DNA from: Gloeomargarita lithophora Alchichica-D10
GTDB taxonomy: Bacteria; Cyanobacteriota; Cyanobacteriia; Gloeomargaritales; Gloeomargaritaceae
NCBI RefSeq assembly: GCF_001870225.1
Contig: NZ_CP017675.1
Coordinates: 2,289,517-2,348,570, forward strand
Length of the DNA stretch: 59,054 nucleotides
Direction of reading: 5' to 3'
Position 1 is the stretch's first letter, and each line of letters opens with the position of its first letter. The translations under genes and the position numbers were made by a program. Of the stretch, positions 9,109-47,957 are shown piece after piece. The notes under the pieces are model-generated. The model worked only from the letters and a program-made list of their open reading frames with translations. It had not been told where the DNA came from and did not search any database.

Positions 9109-10842
9109 CGATCAATCAATCAGACGATGGACAGGCGGGAAAATCGCCGGTTTGCCATTGGGTATTGGTGCTGGGCAGATTCTCAGTTCGTAAAACTAAG
9201 GGTTCAGTCAATGGGGTGGATGCTGAGGCTTGATTCACAGGTACGTTTACGCACAAAAGAGCTTCAGGGAATAAGACCGCTTCACCCATATCCGATAAAT
9301 CTCGCCATTGCCGGTCATTGAAATTGAGGGTAAAGGTAACGGATTCGGTGAACGATGAATTGGGTAATCCGGGAATCAATGGCGCACCCACTTTATACAA
9401 GAAACCATTGCCAATAAATAAAGCAGGCTGGGGAAATGTCGTCTTAAATTGTTGCAAACCCCCCAACACAGCCCAACCATTCACATTGTCTTGGGGACTG
9501 GTGGCATAGACTAAAAATGTACCGCCACTGGTTAAAGCAGTAACACCTACATTGTTGATAAAGTTATCATCTGCAACCAAAGTAATATCATTAGTTGCAG
9601 TAATACTCTTATTGACGATAATATCCCCAGTCAGAGCTTGTAGAAATACACTATTAGCGTTTTCAATGCCATCAGGATTGACAATGCCTACGGTCAAGGT
9701 CTGGCTATTGACGAACTTGAGATCACCTGTAATGTCAGCGGCAATGATGTTAATCAAGTTACTGGGTTCAGTTAAAATTACATCACCCGTACCCAACAAA
9801 GCCAAACCATCGGCAGTAATTGCTTGCGTCTGAGTAACCGTATTTTGAGCAGTCAAAGTGACATTACCAGTGGTGTTAATGCCATTTGTTGCATTTACAG
9901 TGCCGATCTCAAACCCATTGGTATCGGTGTATTTGATGGTGTTAGTCGTGTTAGCGGCAAGGGTGGCTACATCATTATTGGTATTAGTTAGAGCATACAA
10001 TCCATTGCCAAGCAACTCTAATCCACTAGCAAATAAACCACCTACATTATTTTGCGTGACACTTGCAGGAGAGGTAATAGTAATATTATTGGTAGTTTTG
10101 ACTGTGACATCCTTGAAGATGATGACGTTGTTGGTGGAGGTGAAAGTAATTTTGCCAGTGGTATTATCGCCGATGGTGATGTCCCCATTCCCAATACGGA
10201 TAGCATCAGCCCCACTTGTACCTGTACCCGTGTAATTAATACCCCCATTAGTGCTGGTGACCTGCGTTGCACCGCTCAGAAAAATGCCGAAGTTGCCACT
10301 ACCTGTGCCATTGCCGCCCGTGCCTGTATAGGTGATATTGCCTGTGGTGGTGGAGACTTTTGCCCCATCACCTTGAACAATACCATAGTTGCTACTACCT
10401 GTACCATTTCCGCCACCATTACCAGTGATCTTGATTTCTCCAGTGGTGGCAAAAATCTTGGTATTTGTATCTAACACATTGACACCGAAGTTATTAAATG
10501 TCCCATTACCACCCTCACCTGTGTAAGTGATATTGCCGCTTGTACTTGTTACTTCTGCACCAGCACGTTGATGAATGCCATAATTATCGCCACCAGTATT
10601 TCCGCCTGTGCCAGTGAGCAGGATATTACCGCCTTGAGTAATAAGGGTGGAGTTGTCTAATTTAATCCCCACAAAATTTCCTGTGGCTGTGCCTGCGGTG
10701 TTCGCATTAAAGACGATCGCATCAAATCCTGTATTGGTGCTAGTATTTTTTATCTCCACCCCAGAATTGACCACGATATTTTTGCTGGCATCTACGGTGA
10801 TGGTTGATGTACCTGTGTCGTTATTGGTGATGTTTTTGGAGA

Positions 10843-10943
10843 TATAGCAATATGACACGATTTACGAACAGAAATTCCACAGAACCAAGGGCGGGGGCGG
10901 TGCCCCTGCGACCGCTATTCTAAACCCAATTAGGATTGCTATA
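10843..10943. mobile_element. Type B element inserted in the adhesin gene
   Basis: Ends TATAGCAAT and ATTGCTATA are perfect 9-base inverted repeats, and TA flanks both sides. The core GGGGGCGGTGCCCCTGCGACC forms a hairpin. No coding capacity. On the adhesin strand it carries the stop codon that ends the 5' piece. Confidence 0.9.
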
Positions 10944-11429
10944 GTAATTGTGCCATTATTTAATGCTGTGAGGGTTGTAGCACCATTGCTGGTAATACCA
11001 TTAGTTGCATTAACAGTACCAACGGTAAAGGAATTGGTATCGGTGTAGCTGATTTTGTTAGTTGTATCTGCCGCTAGGGTAGTGATGTCATTATTAGGGT
11101 TATTGAGGGTATATGCCCCCGCTCCTAATAGTTCTAGTCCATCAGCAAACAAACCCCCGTTGGTATTTTGCGTGACACTTCCGGGAGAGTTGATAATAAT
11201 ATCTTCGGTAGTTTTAACGGTGGCATCATTTAAGGTGATGGCGTTGTTGGTGGACTTGAGAAGAATAGTCCCACTGGTATTATTGCCAATGATATTGTCC
11301 CCAGTTTCAATACGGATAGCATCAGCAACATTACTACCCGTACCTGTGTAAGTGATATTGGCGGCAGTGGTGGCTACTTGCGCCCCACCAATTTGATAAA
11401 TGCCGTAGTTTTTATTGCCTGTGCCATTC

Positions 11430-12125
11430 CCTGTACCAGTGATCTTAAGTGCCCCTGTGTTGGAAGTAATAGTGGTATTTGCATTTTTCAGGAAAACGCC
11501 GTAGTTATTATCTGTCCCATTGCCTCCAGTGCCAGTGTAGGTAATGTCGCCTGATGTGGTAGTTACTTTTGCTTCATCTTGTTGAAAAATGCCGTAGTTA
11601 GCAGCGCCCGTTCCCTGACCAATGCCTGTGATGTTGATTGCCCCTGAGTCGGAACTGATTATGACATTTGGATTAGTAAGGAGAACGCCGTAGTTCTCAT
11701 TTGTACCATTCCCCCCTGTGCCAATGTAAGTAATGTCACCTGATGTAGTAGAAACTTGCGCTTTATTGAATTGAAAAATGCCGATATTAGTAACGCCAGT
11801 TCCCTGACCTGTACCAGTAACCTTAATTGCCCCAGAGTCGGAACTGATTTTGGTACCTGTAGATTGGAGGAAAACGCCGTAGTTAAAGCTTATGCCGTTG
11901 CCACCTGTCCCTGTGTAGGTGATGTCGCCGGTAGTAGTAGAAACTTGGGCTCCAAGTGCTTGGATAATGCCGTAATTAAACGAGCCAGTCCCATTACCTG
12001 TACCAGTGATCTTAAGTGCTCCTGTGTTGGAAGTAATAGTGGTATTTGCATTTTTCAGAAAAACGCCGTAGTTACTATCTGTCCCATTGCCTCCAGTGCC
12101 AGTGTAGGTGATATTGCCTGTGGTG
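11430..12125. repeat. Near-identical internal repeats of the adhesin gene
   Basis: A stretch of about 110 bases near 11440-11550 (containing GTGTTGGAAGTAATAGTGGT) recurs almost unchanged near 12010-12115, about 570 bases apart and in frame. Shorter, more diverged copies lie between them and in the 3' piece. These encode the repeating ITSNTGALKITGTGNGTG-type beta-helix turns. Confidence 0.75.
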
Positions 12126-15100
12126 GTGGAGACTTGAGAGCTATTAAATTGATAAATACCGTAGTTATTAGCTCCTGAATTAAATCCTTTACCAGTGAGG
12201 GTGATATTGCCTGCTCCTGCGGTGAGGGTTGCGCCATTCAATTCAATGCCACGGGTGAGAGTGCTGGTACCTATAGCTGGATTATTCAGGGGGTCAATTC
12301 CACCCCCCAGGGTGATATTGCCGTTGTTGCTGGTAATAGTAGTTCCTGTGAGTTCAATCGCTCCGCCGTTGGTGCTATCTCGGTCAGAATTGAGCGTAAT
12401 ATCTTTGCCCTGAGTAGTAATGCTACTGCCAGTGTTGCCGATAATGTTATTACCCGCTTGCAAGGTGATGGTTCCTGTTTCGGTGCCACTACCTGTAGAT
12501 AAGGCTCCATTTAAGTTGATATTGCCTGCACCTAGGGGAGTGCGAATGATTACATTATCTTTGAATTGAGCGGTACGAATATCAATATTGCCAGTGCCGG
12601 TTGCACTTCCAATCGTAATCAAGCTAAAGCCATTTGCTAAACGACCAATTTCAGTCGTATCCAGATTTAGTGTCCCTGTTGCTCCTGTACCAATGCCGAT
12701 CGTGGTAGCAGTATTTAAGGGCTGAATGAGTAACTGTCCAGTGCTTCCGATAATGCCCGAAGTGAGTTCCATCTGGTCGGCGGTGATGGTGATATTGCCT
12801 CCATTTGCCCCTACACCCTCGGCTATACTGCCATTATTTAGCGTAAAAGTACCACCGACTTTGATATTGATGGGCGCACCCGCACTATTACTATTGAGGC
12901 GTGAACCAGCAGTAATTGCGCTCAAAATCGCAAAGTTTCGCCCCGCAGAGAGATCAATACCGCCGCTACCGTCTGCTTGGACAGAAGTTTGATTATCAAT
13001 GATGATGTCTCGCCCCGCATTGAGGACTAAGGTTTTCCCACGAGTATCACCAAAGTTGGAAGCTGTACCCAAAATAATGTCATTGGTGGCTTTGAGGGTA
13101 GTTGTGCCTCCAGTGCTGGCAACTCCAGCAGTACCAGCCTCTATAGTTAAAGTGTCTCCGCTCTCTACAGTGATATTGCCAGAGGTTTTTAGCCCAACAG
13201 TAGAATTAACATCAGTCACACTGAGACTATTTTTGTCTAGGTAAATGATATTACTGGTAGTATTCCCCGCTAAAACACTGATGTCGTTGTTAGCATTGGT
13301 TAGGGTAAAACTGCCATCGCCCAAAAGTTCTAATCCATTAGCAGTAATTGCTTGGGTTTGAGTGACGATTCCACCGCTTTTGAGTGTGAGATTATTAGCT
13401 ATACCCACGCTTAAAGCCCCATTGATAGAAATACCTCCCCCATTGGGGTTTTGTAGGATCAGATTGTCAGTAAAGGTGTATCCCCCGACTGAAATTGCCC
13501 CACTGCTATCGGTACGCCCAATGGTAATAGAACTAAACCCATCTTGAATGTTGTTGAGTTCGGTTATATCTAAATTCAGCGTACCACTACCACTATTTAA
13601 GCCAATGGTTGTGGTGGGGGTCAAAGGCTGAATGAGTAATTTGCCTGAGCTTTGAATCGTGCCATCATTTAACTGCATCGTGTCGGCAGTTAGGGTGATA
13701 TTGCCCGTAGTACTGGTGATGGGAGTGGTTGTTCCTGTAAGAATAATTCCAGGGCTAGTTATCCCAGTAGCTTGATAGCTAATGTCGCCTGAGACTGTAG
13801 TTACGGAAGCTGAGTTTTGCTGATAAATACCAAATCCACCTGTGCCAGTTAAACTGATGGAACCATTTCCTGTTGTAACTGCAATTTTAGTGTTTGTATC
13901 AGAGATATAAATACCTGTGTCAGAGCCATTGCCAGTGCCAGTATATTTAATGTCACCGCCAGCGGTTGTAACTATGGCACCATTTTGCTGACCGATTCCC
14001 CGATTCCCTGTGCCGATGAGACTGATGGAACCATTCCCCGCCGTAACTGCAACTTTAGTGTTTGTGTCAGAGATGAGAATACCTGTGTTAGAGCCAGTGC
14101 CAGTGCCAGTGCCAGTATATTCAATGTCACCGCCAGCGGTTGTAACTATGGCACCATTCTGTTGATAAATCCCAGAGCTCCCCGTACCCGTTAAGCTAAT
14201 TGGGCCTGAGGTGGACGAAATCAGTGTATTGGTCTCTGAAATAAAGAGACCTATTTCCGGGCCGGTGGCGTTATAGGTAATGCTGCCAGTTGTGGAGGTG
14301 ACTTGAGCCCCATTTTGCTGACCAATGCCGCGATTCAATGATCCTGACGTTGCGCCAGAAGTTCCGGTTAGTTGAATCGAGCCAGCTTGACTTTGAATTC
14401 TGGAATTAGACTGAGTCACAAGAATACCGAAATTTTCATCACCTGAGTTCCCCCCGCGACCATTGAGAATAATATTCCCCCCAGAGGTTTGGAGGCTCCC
14501 CTGGGTCTCGATGCCATAAAACGTGCCACTGGTTGCAGTTGGGCCTTGATTAGCATTAAAGACAATGGCATTAAACCCGGTTGTGCTGGAGGTATTTTGA
14601 ATCACTGCTCCAGGATTCATGAAAATATTGCGACCCGCATTCAGAGTTAAGGTGGTTGCCGCACTCCAATTAATATTAGCATTGCCAATGATGGTGATAG
14701 TCTCTGCTCCACCATTTGTCGAGCCTGAGGTGCTGATGGTTAAATTGGCACTACCCAGTTGAGCGGCAATGAACGCATCGTTGAAAACATCCAAACTGCC
14801 CGGTGGGAGAGTGTTTCCTCCATCTTGAATGGTGATACTACCGGGGTCTAGTAGTAGTGTGCCAAACTTGCCATTAGTTGCACTCAAATCCGCAAATCCA
14901 GCCATCAATAAATGGTCTTTGCCCGACACTTCCGCAAACCCGCCATCCCCAGAAATAATCCCACCTTTGGCGCTAATAAATCCCGCAAACTTCGTCGTCC
15001 CATCTGCCCACACAATCACTTCCCCGCCATTGCCAGAAGTAAGCGCATCGGCTTTGATTTGGGCACGAGAACTAACGGTTGTTTCTAACGCATTGGGAAG

Positions 15101-16290
15101 TATTCCTTTGCCTTGATAATTCCCGCCGATATTGACAATCCCACCGCCTTTATTTCCCGAAGCATCCACCAGCGCATTCCCATTTAAGGCGATTTTTTCA
15201 CCCGTGATTTCAACCTTACCGCCCCGTTCTCCTGATACATTTAATTCCCCATTCACCGCCACAATACCCTGGGAACCACCGGATAAAACAATCACGCCAT
15301 TGCGATTTTCCGCATACTTCGCTTCAATCATTCCAGAAGTGTTAATCACACTATCTACAATCTGCCCAGCCGCTTGAGCCGTTAAGGTAACAATGCCTCC
15401 GGGTGCGGTGATATTGCCTTGGTTGTCAATCAAAGAATTGAGTTTATTCCCGTAAATATCCGTGATTTGTCCCGCTAAATTCGGGTCAACCGTTACACTT
15501 AATAACCCATCCCCATAAAAATCTAAACTAACGGTCGTTCCTGACGCTAAAACTACCTTCCCCAAGCGAGCCGAAATTACGCCGCTATTTTGCACCGCCG
15601 GAGCGACTAAAGCAGCAAAACCCGCTTCTTTTACTGTAATTAAACCCTGATTCACCACCGATGTCGGAGCTTTTCCTGGCATTTGCTCAAAGCGTAAAAT
15701 ACCCCGCATGAAATCACTATCTTGGATATTTAATGTACTGGCGACCAACCCCGCCACATCCACCCGCGCGGTGGGTAAAAACATGATCCCGTTGGGGTTA
15801 ATCAAAAAGATTTGCCCATTCGCCGTAAGTTTCCCGGCGATACTCGAAGGCGTATTCCCCGTGACTCGATTTAAGGTGGCCGATGTACTGCTGGGTTGTT
15901 GAAAATTCACCCACTCCGGCGCACCAATGCTAAACCCATTCCAGTTGATAACCGCTCTGTCCGTGGATTGGTTGATGTTAAGTTTCGTGGCACTCTCCTG
16001 CTGAATCACTGCCTGACCCTGGGTGACCACGCCGCCCTGGGGTAGTGCCATCCCCGGCATTTGGCTGAAGCACAATACCGCCAACGCCTTGAGAGGAAAC
16101 CAGACCAGATAACGGAGGGAAGACAGGAGTTTCATCGCCCTAAATGATGATGGTATTGCTATACTTGCCTGAGTATAATGCCAGAATTTGGGCAAGTGAG
16201 ATTTTTTTAATTTTTAGTTAAGCCCTGGTTAAGACATCCGAGTATGGGACACCTCTAGGGATAGTAGGTCACATCTGTTCGTCAAATGGC

Positions 16291-16413
16291 TATAGCAATC
16301 CTAATTCAATTTTGAACAGCGGTCGCAGGGGCGCCGCCCCCGTACTTGGTTCTTCTGAATATTTGTTCGCCAAATGGCTACGCCACGCAGGCTATCGGGT
16401 GGGATTGCTGTTT
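16291..16413. mobile_element. Type B element upstream of the adhesin gene
   Basis: Left end TATAGCAATCCTAATTCAAT, core GGTCGCAGGGGCGCCGCCCC, decayed right end GGGATTGCTGTTT. A partial type A end (GACACCTCTA) precedes it near 16249. It sits in the 222-base gap between the divergent ends of the adhesin and Uma2 genes. Confidence 0.75.
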
Positions 16414-44299: not shown

Positions 44300-44758
44300 T
44301 CAGGGAAACCAATTTTCATCTAGGGCTTGTTCTAGGGTAAATTGTGGTGCCTCAGGAATCAGATTTTTATCTAATTCACTTGCATCCAAAAATAAGTTTC
44401 TGCCCTGGTGATAAGCAGATAAATAATTTTCTTGAAGAACATTTTTTAGGCTAGGACTATCTTTCAGTATCACTTTGATTCGCTGACGAAAACTACGAAC
44501 TTCTCGTTTCCAACCCCGCCAACACCTTTCCCGCTCTGATGCCCAGTATTGCATTTTCAATAAATGCTCACATAAACGCATAAGGTAGCTTGTTATTGCT
44601 CGTTTATCACTTTTTCCCAAGCTCTCTACCTCCTCGATTAGATTGGGTAAATCCAGATGGTGAAAATCTTGTTTTTTCAATAAAATTGCCGTCTGCTCTA
44701 GCCACAGAGCAAAGTCGGTTTCGTATAGTTCACTCATCGTTAATTTTGATTCTTTCAT
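44300..44758 (-). CDS. DUF29-family protein (array member 1, most diverged)
   Basis: About 152 residues. N-terminal MSELYETDFALWLEQTAILL and DLPNLIEEVESLGKSDKRAI are the DUF29 signature; the middle carries WRGWKREVRSFRQRIKVIL. The C-terminus (TLEQALDENWFP) differs from its four paralogues, which end in LLNDIFWE or -K. A helical protein of unknown function, widespread in cyanobacteria. The ATG at 44758 sits 7 bases after a GAGGTG that belongs to a type A element. Confidence 0.85.
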   Translation of the reverse strand: MKESKLTMSELYETDFALWLEQTAILLKKQDFHHLDLPNLIEEVESLGKSDKRAITSYLMRLCEHLLKMQYWASERERCWRGWKREVRSFRQRIKVILKDSPSLKNVLQENYLSAYHQGRNLFLDASELDKNLIPEAPQFTLEQALDENWFP

Positions 44759-44762
44759 CACA

Positions 44763-44872
44763 GGACACCTCTATTTATTTGCACTAACAGAAAGTTATCT
44801 CGCTGGAATGCCAGTATTACTGAGAACCAGGGACGGGGGCGGTGCCCCTGCGACCTATTTTTAGAGGTGTCC
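44763..44872. mobile_element. Type A element in the DUF29 array, copy 1
   Basis: 110 bases, GGACACCTCTATTTATTTGC to TTTTTAGAGGTGTCC, with core GGGGGCGGTGCCCCTGCGAC. Differs from copy 2 at 45805-45914 by perhaps one base. Confidence 0.92.
44766..44771 (-). promoter_or_regulatory. Ribosome binding site of DUF29 gene 1 inside the element
   Basis: GAGGTG on the minus strand, 7 bases before the ATG at 44758. It is part of the terminal inverted repeat of the adjacent element. Confidence 0.75.
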
Positions 44873-44877
44873 AATTG

Positions 44878-45336
44878 CTACTCCCAAAATATATCATTTA
44901 ACAACTGTTCAGAGTCAGTGGGAAATGGGCAAATTTCAGGAAATGGATAACTTTGATAATCAGGATTTTCTTTTAATAATAGTAATGCGTCTTGATAGCA
45001 TTCATCAATAATTTGCTGGACATATATTTTTAAGCTGGGTACATCTTCGAGTAATTTTTTAATTTCTTTTTGATTACGTCTAATGGTATCTGTCCAGCCT
45101 CGATAATCCTGAATCAAGTCAGTAAAACATCGCTTCAAACTATGTTCAAACAAGGTGGTTAAACGATTGTACAATTCCCGTTTATCGCTTCTCCCCAAGC
45201 TCTCTACCTCCTCGATTAGATTAGGTAAATCCAGATGTTGAAAATCTTGTTTTTGCAATAAAATTGCCGTCTGCTCTAGCCACAAAGCAAAATCCGTTTC
45301 GTACAGTTCACGCATGGTTAATTTTGATTCTTTCAT
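44878..45336 (-). CDS. DUF29-family protein (array member 2)
   Basis: About 152 residues from the ATG at 45336; the frame opens with a TTG at 45351. The GGAAG ribosome site is built from the last codons and stop of member 3, so the two are co-translated. RELYETDFALWLEQTAILLQ and DLPNLIEEVESLGRSDKREL match the other members; it ends FPTDSEQLLNDIFWE. In the middle it carries DYRGWTDTIRRNQKEIKKLL, closer to member 5 than to 3 and 4. Confidence 0.85.
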   Translation of the reverse strand: MKESKLTMRELYETDFALWLEQTAILLQKQDFQHLDLPNLIEEVESLGRSDKRELYNRLTTLFEHSLKRCFTDLIQDYRGWTDTIRRNQKEIKKLLEDVPSLKIYVQQIIDECYQDALLLLKENPDYQSYPFPEICPFPTDSEQLLNDIFWE

Positions 45337-45341
45337 TACAG

Positions 45342-45800
45342 TTACTTCCAAAAAATATCATTTAACAACCGTTCGACATCGGTAGGAAATGGACAATTTT
45401 TAGGGAATGAGTAGTTTTGATAATCTAAATTTACTACTAACCGTCTTTTTGCCATTCTATAGCAATTATCAAAAACTTCTGACCAATAGCGTTTCAAGCT
45501 GGGAGAATCTTCTAGGCAAATTTTTAATTCATCCTGCTCTCTAACAATAGTTTCTTCCCACCCCCGATAATCATAAGGGCTGTCCACATATTTTCTTTTT
45601 AAGGCGTGTTCCAACAGGGTAGTCAATCTACTTTGTAATTCATGCTTTTGACTTTTGCCCAAACTCTCTACCTCCTCAATTAAATTGGGTAAATCTAGGT
45701 GCTGAAAGTCCTGTTTTTGTAGCAAAATTGCCGTCTGCTCTAACCACAGAGCAAAATCAGTTTCGTATAATTCACTCATGGTTAATTTTAAGTCTTTCAT
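45342..45800 (-). CDS. DUF29-family protein (array member 3)
   Basis: About 152 residues from the ATG at 45800. MSELYETDFALWLEQTAILL, then HALKRKYVDSPYDYRGWEET and FPTDVERLLNDIFWK. Most similar to member 4 in the central region (REQDELK...EDSPSLKRYW, VFDNCYRMAKRRLV). Its ribosome site (GAGGTG) lies in the element at 45805-45914. First gene of the repeated pair 3-2. Confidence 0.85.
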   Translation of the reverse strand: MKDLKLTMSELYETDFALWLEQTAILLQKQDFQHLDLPNLIEEVESLGKSQKHELQSRLTTLLEHALKRKYVDSPYDYRGWEETIVREQDELKICLEDSPSLKRYWSEVFDNCYRMAKRRLVVNLDYQNYSFPKNCPFPTDVERLLNDIFWK

Positions 45801-45804
45801 CACA

Positions 45805-45914
45805 GGACACCTCTATTTGTTTGCACTAACAGAAAGTTATCTCGCTGGAATGCCAGTATTACTGAGAACCAGGGACGGGGGCGGTGCCCCTGCGACCTAT
45901 TTTTAGAGGTGTCC
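45805..45914. mobile_element. Type A element in the DUF29 array, copy 2
   Basis: 110 bases, GGACACCTCTATTTGTTTGC to TTTTTAGAGGTGTCC. Near-identical to the copy at 44763-44872 and placed the same way between DUF29 genes, 1042 bases away. Confidence 0.92.
45808..45813 (-). promoter_or_regulatory. Ribosome binding site of DUF29 gene 3 inside the element
   Basis: GAGGTG on the minus strand, 7 bases before the ATG at 45800, within the terminal repeat of the type A element. Same arrangement as at 44766-44771. Confidence 0.75.
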
Positions 45915-45919
45915 AACTG

Positions 45920-46378
45920 CTACTCCCAAAATATATCATTTAACAACTGTTCAGAATCAGTAGGAAATGGGCAGGTTTCAGACAAGGCATATTTTCTATA
46001 ATCCGAGTTAGCCACCAATCGTCTTTTGGCTAATTGATAACAACTATCGAAAACTTCCAGCCAGTAGCCTTGTAAACTTGGCGAGTCAGCGAGGATGTTT
46101 TTTAATTCATCCTGTTCCCTGAGTATTGTTTCTTCCCAGCCTCGATAATTGTAGGAACTATTCACATACTTTCTTTTTAAGACGTGTTCTAATAGGGTAG
46201 TCAATCTACTTTTTAATTCTCGTCTATCTCTGCCAGCCAAACCCTCTACCTCCTCGATTAAATTAGCTAAATCTAGGTGCTGAAAGTCTTGAGCTTTTAA
46301 TAATTTAGCCGTTTGTTCTAGCCACAGAGCAAAATCAGTTTCGTATAATTCACTCATGGTTAATTTTAATTCTTTCAT
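45920..46378 (-). CDS. DUF29-family protein (array member 4)
   Basis: About 152 residues from the ATG at 46378 (TTG at 46393 opens the frame). The ribosome site GGGAG is the end of member 5. MSELYETDFALWLEQTAKLL, VEGLAGRDRRELKSRLTTLL, and FPTDSEQLLNDIFWE. The AGRDRREL phrase is shared with member 5 and replaces the GKSxKRxL of members 1 to 3. Confidence 0.85.
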   Translation of the reverse strand: MKELKLTMSELYETDFALWLEQTAKLLKAQDFQHLDLANLIEEVEGLAGRDRRELKSRLTTLLEHVLKRKYVNSSYNYRGWEETILREQDELKNILADSPSLQGYWLEVFDSCYQLAKRRLVANSDYRKYALSETCPFPTDSEQLLNDIFWE

Positions 46379-46383
46379 TACAA

Positions 46384-46836
46384 CTACTCCCAAAATATAT
46401 CATTTAACAACTGTTCAATATCAGTAGGAAATGGACATGATTTAGGAAAATCTATGTCATGTTCTATCGTGACAATGGCGAGTGCATCCCCATAGCATTC
46501 ATCTATACAAAGTAGAAAGTAACTTTCTAAACTGGGGGAGTCTTTAAGTAATTTATTGATTTCAATTTGTGTGCGTTTGATGGTGCTTGCCCATCCCCGA
46601 TAGTCATAGGGGTTATCCACATATTTTCTTTTGAGGGCGTGTTCAAATAGGGTGGTTAATCTACTTTGTAATTCTCGTCTATCTCTGCCAGCTAAACCCT
46701 CTACCTCCTCGATTAAATTAACTAAATCAAGATGCTGAAAATCCTGTTTTTGCAATAAAATTACCGTTTGTTCTAGCCAACGGTAATAGTCGGTGTCATA
46801 CAGAGTTGTTAATTCGGAAGCAGGCTGGAATTGCAT
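46384..46836 (-). CDS. DUF29-family protein (array member 5)
   Basis: About 150 residues from the ATG at 46836; the frame extends to 46884 into the mrp gene end, but MQFQPASELTTLYDTDYYRW is the better start. It has a different N-terminus (TLYDTDYYRWLEQTVILLQK) but the usual DLVNLIEEVEGLAGRDRREL and LLNDIFWE. First gene of the array in the direction of transcription, 45 bases after the mrp stop, so the array may be read from the mrp transcript. Confidence 0.85.
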   Translation of the reverse strand: MQFQPASELTTLYDTDYYRWLEQTVILLQKQDFQHLDLVNLIEEVEGLAGRDRRELQSRLTTLFEHALKRKYVDNPYDYRGWASTIKRTQIEINKLLKDSPSLESYFLLCIDECYGDALAIVTIEHDIDFPKSCPFPTDIEQLLNDIFWE

Positions 46837-46880
46837 GGCTCTACGGGCTTTATTCCCATTGTAACCCCTCCCAATGAGCG

Positions 46881-47957
46881 TCAATCTGCTGTCAAGGCCA
46901 AGACCGACACCCGCGCCGCTACCCGCCCCGCCAATTCCCGCAGTGCCACCGCTGAGGCCAATTCCGGTTCAGAAACCACCACCGGAGTTCCCACATCCCC
47001 ACCCACCCGCACGGGCAGTTCTAAAGGAATTTGTCCCAACAATGGTACGCCCAAACTCTTTGCTAACTGGGTGCCGCCGCCGGTTCCGAAAATGGCATAG
47101 CGTTTGTCGGGGGCATCCGGGGGAATGAAATAACTCATGTTTTCCACCACCCCCAGCACCGGCACTCCCAACTGGCGAAACATCTCCAACCCCCGGCGAG
47201 CATCGGCCACGGATACGGTTTGGGGCGTAGTGACAATGACTGCACCGGCCATCGGCACCGCCTGCGCCAAGGTCAACTGGGCATCCCCGGTGCCGGGGGG
47301 TAAGTCCACCAGCAAATAATCCAATTCGCCCCATTGCACCTGGTAAAGAAATTGGCGAATCACCCCGTTGAGCATCGGCCCGCGCCAAATAATCGGTTGG
47401 GTGGGGGTCACCAAAAAGGCCATGGATACCAACTTCACCCCATGATTTTCCGCCGGGGTAAGGACTTCCCCCTGGGGACTGTCGGCCACCACCAGCCGTT
47501 GTTGACTCACCCCCAACATGATCGGGTCATTGGGGCCGTAAATATCCGCATCCAGCAGACCCACCCGGGCGCCGGTTTGCGCCAAGGCCACCGCCACATT
47601 CACCGCTACGGTGCTTTTGCCGACCCCGCCTTTGCCACTGGCAATCGCCACGATATTCCGCACCCCCGGTACCCCCTGGCGTTGGGGGAGGGATTTTTGC
47701 TGGGGCGTTTCCGCCGTGGTGACAATTTCCACCTGCTCAATCCCGGGTAAAGCTAACACCGCCTGCCGACAGTCCTCTTCGATAAATTGCCGCAGGGGAC
47801 AAGCCGGGGTGGTCAACACCAAATTAAACGACACCCGCCCCGCTTCTATCTGTACCCGGCGGATCATATTCAATTCCACCAAACTACGTTGGAGTTCCGG
47901 GTCTTGCACCGGACGCAATACCTCCAGCACCTGTTGGGGGGTGACCGACTGGCTCAT
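46881..47957 (-). CDS. mrp: Mrp/ApbC-type P-loop iron-sulfur carrier
   Basis: About 358 residues from the ATG at 47957 (GAGAGA site upstream; the frame opens at 47996). N-terminal MIP18-like domain (QQVLEVLRPVQDPELQRSLV), then the deviant Walker A IASGKGGVGKSTVAVN, LLDADIYGPNDPIMLG and DYLLVDLPPGTGDAQLTL. The Cys-X-X-Cys found in enteric ApbC after ENMSYF is absent (ENMSYFIPPDAPDKRY), the same as I recall for cyanobacterial and plastid HCF101-type relatives. It carries 4Fe-4S clusters, in plastids towards photosystem I. Confidence 0.9.
   Translation of the reverse strand: MSQSVTPQQVLEVLRPVQDPELQRSLVELNMIRRVQIEAGRVSFNLVLTTPACPLRQFIEEDCRQAVLALPGIEQVEIVTTAETPQQKSLPQRQGVPGVRNIVAIASGKGGVGKSTVAVNVAVALAQTGARVGLLDADIYGPNDPIMLGVSQQRLVVADSPQGEVLTPAENHGVKLVSMAFLVTPTQPIIWRGPMLNGVIRQFLYQVQWGELDYLLVDLPPGTGDAQLTLAQAVPMAGAVIVTTPQTVSVADARRGLEMFRQLGVPVLGVVENMSYFIPPDAPDKRYAIFGTGGGTQLAKSLGVPLLGQIPLELPVRVGGDVGTPVVVSEPELASAVALRELAGRVAARVSVLALTAD

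What the first reader, a model, noticed from the sequence alone, without database searches (positions are those of the whole stretch)
10843..10943. In-frame mini-element inserts a stop into a 2300-residue adhesin
The element is 99 bases plus one TA duplication, a multiple of three, so the frame is intact on both sides and a single TAA at 10862 is the only block. Without it the protein reads GTIT-ISKNITNNDTGTSTIT across the junction. Excision, suppression or restart at the GTG in the element would be switches between short and long surface protein.
Basis: partly seen in the sequence, partly recalled or inferred. Interest (0 to 1): 0.7.

Follow-up and report, generated by a model that had tools for sequence, protein, structure and literature searches.

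The report
Recent mobile-element insertion truncating an adhesin
A tiny non-coding mobile DNA element that has recently multiplied in this cyanobacterium has landed in a very large surface-protein gene and cut its product short; this is a known kind of gene damage, and nothing found supports an on/off switch.

Summary
At 10843-10943 a 97-bp element (TAGCAAT...ATTGCTA) lies between two TA dinucleotides inside one long minus-strand frame. It adds 99 bp, keeps the frame, and its single in-frame TAA (10862-10864) ends a TPS-domain exoprotein at about 1757 residues; with flanks joined it would read 2306 codons. The element is a MITE: 58 strict copies in this 3.05-Mb genome of the Gloeomargaritales type, 7 identical to this one, more in sister genomes, and a matching 1151-bp IS630/Tc1-mariner-type insertion sequence with the same ends. 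In another gene interrupted by this family, three sister genomes carry the empty single-TA site. The triplet length belongs to the family, not to this gene: 18 of 19 frames it interrupts gain a stop, and 6 of 21 copies in one sister genome are not 3n. The proposed switch is not supported: excision as shown for ISY100 leaves TATATA, here a stop 9 codons later, and a GTG restart has no signal peptide or TPS domain. The lost 576 residues include a conserved C-terminal domain with a cysteine pair, so the likely outcome is a truncated, perhaps released, exoprotein and a dead tail. An identical copy also splits a second TPS exoprotein.

The parts
10843..10943 (-). MITE with its two TA target copies: TA 10843-10844, 97-bp element 10845-10941, TA 10942-10943
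   Evidence: net +99 bp
10862..10864 (-). TAA stop supplied by the element, the only stop between the two halves
   Evidence: all six frames of this subfamily hold at least one stop
10856..10858 (-).
   Evidence: no clear ribosome binding site, product lacks export signals
10862..16135 (-). truncated TPS exoprotein, ATG at 16135, about 1757 aa, of which the last 25 come from the element
   Evidence: start codon chosen by reading the hydrophobic N-terminus
15242..16048 (-). TPS secretion domain PF05860 (residues 50-318 of the TTG-started frame)
   Evidence: E 3e-36
9116..10842 (-). separated 3' part of the gene, still open, about 575 codons
9116..9700 (-). conserved C-terminal domain with a cysteine pair, lost from the truncated protein
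   Evidence: alignment A1 of 7 proteins, C-terminal ends, dN/dS 0.15-0.20
16291..16411 (-). older, altered copy of the same MITE family upstream of the adhesin start

Best explanation
A recently multiplying MITE, moved by an IS630/Tc1-mariner-type transposase, inserted at a TA in a large two-partner-secretion (TPS) exoprotein gene. Its in-frame TAA ends translation after about 1730 native residues plus 25 residues read from the element. Shown: the insertion, the family, the matching insertion sequence, the stop, and intact relatives of the full-length protein. Inferred: the truncated protein keeps signal peptide and TPS domain and so can still be exported by one of the two TpsB proteins of the genome, but lacks the conserved C-terminal cysteine-pair domain, so it is either non-functional or released instead of held at the surface; the 3' part is a recent dead tail that has not yet decayed.
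For: Seven 101/101 identical copies and 59 matches in all in the genome; 58 strict copies, 0 in the reversed control; the family in 4 of 8 genomes of the GTDB family (58, 106, 21, 11 copies). An IS630-type insertion sequence of 1151 bp with the same TATAGCAATCC ends; relatives in two sister genomes, one exactly 1151 bp once a nested 99-bp MITE insertion is subtracted; 27 of the first 28 nt of one sister IS end equal the end of a MITE in the same genome. Transposase in 3 of the 4 MITE-bearing genomes and in 0 of the 4 MITE-free ones. Empty single-TA site in 3 of 3 orthologs of another interrupted gene. 18 of 19 frames interrupted by the family gain a stop. Head and tail match within single uninterrupted frames in paralogs and sister genomes. 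TPS domain, two TpsB homologs PF03865 in the genome, Cys-pair C-terminus in 7 of 7 aligned proteins.
Against: No empty allele of this very site was seen: the gene is repeat-rich and no sister genome has a recognisable site-level ortholog. Movement by this transposase is inferred from shared ends only, and the match of the window MITE's second end to the IS ends is weaker (16-18 of 28 nt). Export of the truncated form and the anchoring role of the cysteine pair are untested; a structure prediction of the C-terminal domain failed (mean pLDDT 29.9). The spacing of about 40 residues between the cysteines differs from the short HMW1 loop (recalled).
Confidence: 0.85

Rival explanations
1. Reversible switch: the element excises cleanly and restores the long adhesin in part of the population.
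For: Net insertion is 3n and the tail is intact; the family is recently active.
Against: Excision of the studied family member leaves TATATA, here a stop 9 codons later. An intact tail is expected from recency alone. The same triplet element sits in many unrelated genes and intergenic sites.
Confidence: 0.04
2. Translation bypass: TAA read-through or restart at the GTG yields a tail-containing product.
For: Only one stop separates the halves; a GTG follows at once.
Against: No suppressor or recoding signal was looked for genome-wide; a restart product lacks signal peptide and TPS domain; no clear Shine-Dalgarno sequence.
Confidence: 0.04
3. Tolerated and possibly favoured truncation: losing the C-terminal part turns a surface-held exoprotein into a released one, and the same happened to a second TPS exoprotein. 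(A special case of the best explanation, with selection added.)
For: An identical copy splits a TPS-CHAT protein between its TPS/repeat part and its CHAT domain; C-terminal disulfide anchors and secretion of N-terminal truncates are documented for other TPS proteins (PMC5422565, passages).
Against: Only two cases among 19 interrupted frames; large dispensable genes are easy targets; no selection test is possible on one genome.
Confidence: 0.12
4. Palindromic element selected to insert protein-compatible segments, as in Rickettsia.
For: Nearly all copies are 3n long (59 of 60 examined); one copy (L113) is stop-free inside a BglII-type endonuclease frame.
Against: 18 of 19 interrupted frames gain a stop; 6 of 21 copies in G004 are 100, 102 or 103 bp and so not 3n net.
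Confidence: 0.02

Closest known systems
ISY100 (IS630/Tc1-mariner family) of Synechocystis PCC 6803 (PMC2170065, passages)
   Same: TA target with TA duplication, short inverted repeats, cyanobacterial IS630-type transposase; same end geometry (element starts with TA)
   Different: the window element is 97 bp without a gene; its partner IS is 1151 bp with two overlapping frames and an A11 run between them
MITEs of Anabaena sp. 90 (PMC3542288, passages)
   Same: 147 MITEs, 15 of them inside disrupted reading frames and producing pseudogenes, in a cyanobacterium
   Different: those were classed as type II (no matching IS in the genome); here a matching IS is present
Rickettsia palindromic elements (review PMC10969869, passages)
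   Same: short palindromic repeats inserted in frame within genes
   Different: those keep the gene readable; here the element brings stops
HMW1/HxuA C-terminal anchor of TPS proteins (review PMC5422565, passages)
   Same: large TPS exoprotein with a conserved C-terminal cysteine pair
   Different: no sequence relation was tested; cysteine spacing larger; function untested; and here the region is cut off

Membership tests
MITE of an IS630/Tc1-mariner-type IS | terminal inverted repeats, high copy number, no transposase gene | tested here: met
   58 strict copies of about 101 bp, 7 identical
MITE of an IS630/Tc1-mariner-type IS | insertion at TA with duplication of TA | tested here: met
   empty TA in 3 of 3 orthologs of the gene interrupted in L016, TA on both sides in the occupied copy
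MITE of an IS630/Tc1-mariner-type IS | an autonomous IS of that family with the same ends in the same genome | tested here: met
   L056 1371-2521, PF13358 transposase frame plus helix-turn-helix frame; sister copies. That it is active was not tested.
MITE of an IS630/Tc1-mariner-type IS | mobilisation in trans by that transposase | not testable with these tools
   needs a transposition assay
Two-partner-secretion exoprotein (TpsA) | N-terminal TPS domain | tested here: met
   PF05860, E 3e-36
Two-partner-secretion exoprotein (TpsA) | TpsB transporter in the genome | tested here: met
   two PF03865 matches over cut-off, not adjacent to the gene
HMW1-type C-terminal anchor | C-terminal cysteine pair | tested here: met
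   present in the window tail and 6 of 6 aligned homologs
HMW1-type C-terminal anchor | disulfide loop that holds the protein in its transporter | tested here: inconclusive
   structure prediction at pLDDT 29.9; needs experiment
Phase-variable locus | both states present in one population | not testable with these tools
   no reads or second strain held
Rickettsia-type protein-compatible palindromic element | inserted copies keep the host frame open | tested here: not met
   18 of 19 interrupted frames gain a stop

The most novel reading that the evidence does not exclude
One MITE lineage has converted two different TPS exoproteins of the same cell from full-length forms (one with a C-terminal cysteine-pair domain, one with a C-terminal CHAT domain) into forms that keep the export module and lose the C-terminal anchor or effector part, releasing them into the medium or mat matrix and being maintained for that reason.
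Probability: 0.1. Interest if true: 0.5.

Novelty: new member of a known kind. Interest (0 to 1): 0.28.

Why it matters
It documents a MITE family with its likely parent IS, apparently in recent expansion, in the cyanobacterial lineage closest to plastids (relationship recalled), and shows how a 99-bp element can look like a designed in-frame switch while being ordinary insertional damage. If the truncated exoproteins turn out to be secreted, it would be a simple natural experiment on what the C-terminal domain of cyanobacterial TPS proteins does.

Tried and rejected
Site-level ortholog of the adhesin: head and tail pieces were searched separately against homologs; the internal repeats prevent a unique junction, and the neighbours of the best G002 homolog are not the window's neighbours. 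So the empty site was shown for another gene.

RNA structure of the element: energy z-score -1.68, 12 of 200 shuffles as good, so no claim of a functional RNA hairpin or terminator.

Selection for triplet length: rejected on the G004 lengths, 15 of 21 at 101 bp and 6 at 100, 102 or 103 bp. Caveat: those copies are older and may have gained indels after insertion.

Other IS630 transposase fragments of the genome (L054, L055): L054 has no TATAGCA ends in the stretch, L055 merely lies beside a MITE copy; not taken as the partner.

Structure of the C-terminal domain: pLDDT 29.9, no fold search made.

Papers: 'Gloeomargarita' with 'MITE' gave one paper, an algal genome (listing only); other searches are (listings). 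I did not find this MITE family described in that library; subscription journals are mostly absent.

Full report
What is there. On the minus strand a frame from 16195 (TTG) or 16135 (ATG) runs to a TAA at 10862-10864; a second frame, 9116-10858, continues in the same frame to the end of the gene. Between them lies a 101-bp stretch, 10843-10943, that begins and ends with TATAGCAAT in inverted orientation. Reading it as 97 bp between two copies of TA, the insertion adds 99 bp. With the flanks joined at one TA the frame reads 2306 codons from the ATG. The element adds 25 residues before its stop.

Which genome. The window lies in a single-contig genome of 3,049,282 bases. The name Gloeomargarita lithophora for the window's own genome is recalled from genome size and was not tested; its taxonomy entry was looked up only.

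The element family. The 101-bp string occurs 7 times at 100% identity and has 59 matches at E <= 1. A strict pattern with both ends finds 58 copies, and 0 with the pattern read backwards. In the 8 genomes held of the family, 4 carry it: 58, 106, 21 and 11 copies; 4 have none. I examined 60 copies in the window's genome (the 58 strict ones plus two near copies): 56 are 101 bp, two 116, one 92, and one 99 that abuts a masked stretch. They fall into groups of identical copies: 20, 7, 5, 4 and smaller, which points to recent bursts. Insertion sites share a symmetric preference, A-N-(C/A)-TA-(G/T)-N-T, over 56 sites.

The likely parent. The genome has three PF13358 (IS630-type DDE) matches. One of them lies in a 1151-bp unit, L056 1371-2521, that begins and ends with TATAGCAATCC, with a helix-turn-helix frame and a DDE frame that overlap at a run of eleven A. 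Such overlaps are usual where a transposase is made by frameshift (recalled). It is the only full copy; fragments exist. The same IS is in G002, where it spans 1250 bp including a nested 99-bp MITE insertion, so 1151 without it, and in G004 at 1132 bp. In the first 28 nt, one end of the G004 IS matches a G004 MITE end at 27 of 28 positions. The window MITE's one end matches the sister IS ends at 22-24 of 28 and the own IS ends at 19-20 of 28; its other end matches all of them at only 16-18 of 28. Transposase matches occur in 3 of 4 MITE-bearing genomes, not in G005, which is 83% complete, and in 0 of 4 others.

Direct proof of insertion for the family. In a glutathione-transferase-like gene (L016; that name is by reading, no family search was made), three sister genomes carry an uninterrupted frame with a single TA where this genome has TA-element-TA. 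For the adhesin itself no site-level ortholog could be found because of its internal repeats.

Is the frame-keeping special? Of the 60 copies, 19 sit in a frame of at least 150 codons when flanks are joined, with at least 20 codons on each side. In 18 of these 19 the element brings at least one stop; only L113, in a BglII-type endonuclease frame, is stop-free. The subfamily in the window has a stop in every one of six frames. Net lengths are multiples of three in 59 of 60 here, but in G004 6 of 21 copies are 100, 102 or 103 bp. The simplest reading is a founder length, not selection for reading frames.

What the protein is. The head has a TPS secretion domain, PF05860, E 3e-36. Two TpsB-type transporters (PF03865) are encoded elsewhere in the genome. 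Paralogs and sister proteins read uninterrupted through the corresponding parts: a 1586-aa paralog with 69% identity to the tail over tail residues 65-572, a 2157-aa paralog, and a 2104-aa sister protein. The last 190 or so residues are well conserved; the window sequence and six homologs share 50 listed invariant columns and a pair of cysteines close to the end. The ratio dN/dS over this domain is 0.20 against the paralog and 0.15 against the sister protein, so the domain was under constraint until recently.

Consequences. In TPS proteins such as HMW1 and HxuA a C-terminal disulfide-bonded domain holds the exoprotein in its transporter, and N-terminal truncates are secreted efficiently (PMC5422565, passages read). 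By analogy, not by homology, the truncated window protein may be exported and not held. A structure prediction of the domain was uninformative (pLDDT 29.9). The tail has no start signal of note: the GTG follows the TAA codon after one codon, without a clear Shine-Dalgarno sequence, and its product would lack a signal peptide.

Why not a switch. [quoted passage not shown] The window element also begins with TA, so the same reaction would leave TATATA, a net +4, and a stop 9 codons after the junction; a TATA junction stops after 18. Only precise loss of 99 bp would restore the frame. That can happen by rare repair or slippage events but is not what the transposase does. Whether this family's transposase behaves as ISY100 does is inferred.

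A parallel case. Another of the seven identical copies, at 2739046, splits a second TPS exoprotein between its TPS/repeat part and a C-terminal CHAT domain (PF12770), again with a single in-frame stop, in a different frame of the element. Two of seven is suggestive but post hoc; large dispensable genes collect insertions.

Place among known things. MITEs disrupting genes are established in cyanobacteria: Anabaena sp. 90 has 147 MITEs, 15 within disrupted frames (PMC3542288, passages), and mcy genes inactivated by MITEs are cited in a review (PMC10969869, passages). The family here, with a parent IS in three genomes, is a new member of that kind; I found no description of it in the library searched.

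Verdict. Observation confirmed, insertion reading supported, switch reading not supported. Interest is modest.

Noticed in passing
L001 / L073 6047-6147 (G000:C1:2739046-2739146): An identical copy of the window's MITE splits a second TPS exoprotein between its TPS/repeat part and a CHAT domain, with one in-frame stop.
   Followed up: partly
L100 and L101 (G000:C1:284948-285048 and 287425-287525), L129: Two neighbouring paralogs, 93.7% identical over 1231 bp, carry MITEs of two different subfamilies in opposite orientation at exactly the same TA. Either a strong target hot spot or replacement of one copy.
   Followed up: partly
L011, L103, L113, L027, L029: Frames interrupted by the MITE family include a cas3, a CARF/Csx1-like nuclease, a BglII-type endonuclease, a type II methyltransferase and a PDC-M45A candidate: PADLOC families match 5 of the 9 genes scanned (10 pieces; the other interrupted genes were not scanned). 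Possibly relaxed constraint on defence genes.
   Followed up: partly
L113 1501-1601 (G000:C1:1883484-1883584): The one copy among 19 that is stop-free in the frame it interrupts; it would add 33 residues to a BglII-type endonuclease.
   Followed up: no
G000:C1:2479473-2479864: Four MITE copies head to tail that share their TATA ends, an array of nested or tandem insertions.
   Followed up: no
window 16291-16411: An older altered MITE copy lies between the adhesin start and the Uma2-family gene, where a promoter would be expected.
   Followed up: no
L085 1199-1300: In the sister genome G002 the IS630-type element itself carries a nested MITE between its ends.
   Followed up: no
window 44500-46900: Long direct repeats of 211-300 bp with spacings of 578 and 464, apparently repeated genes of about 150-170 aa.
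   Followed up: no
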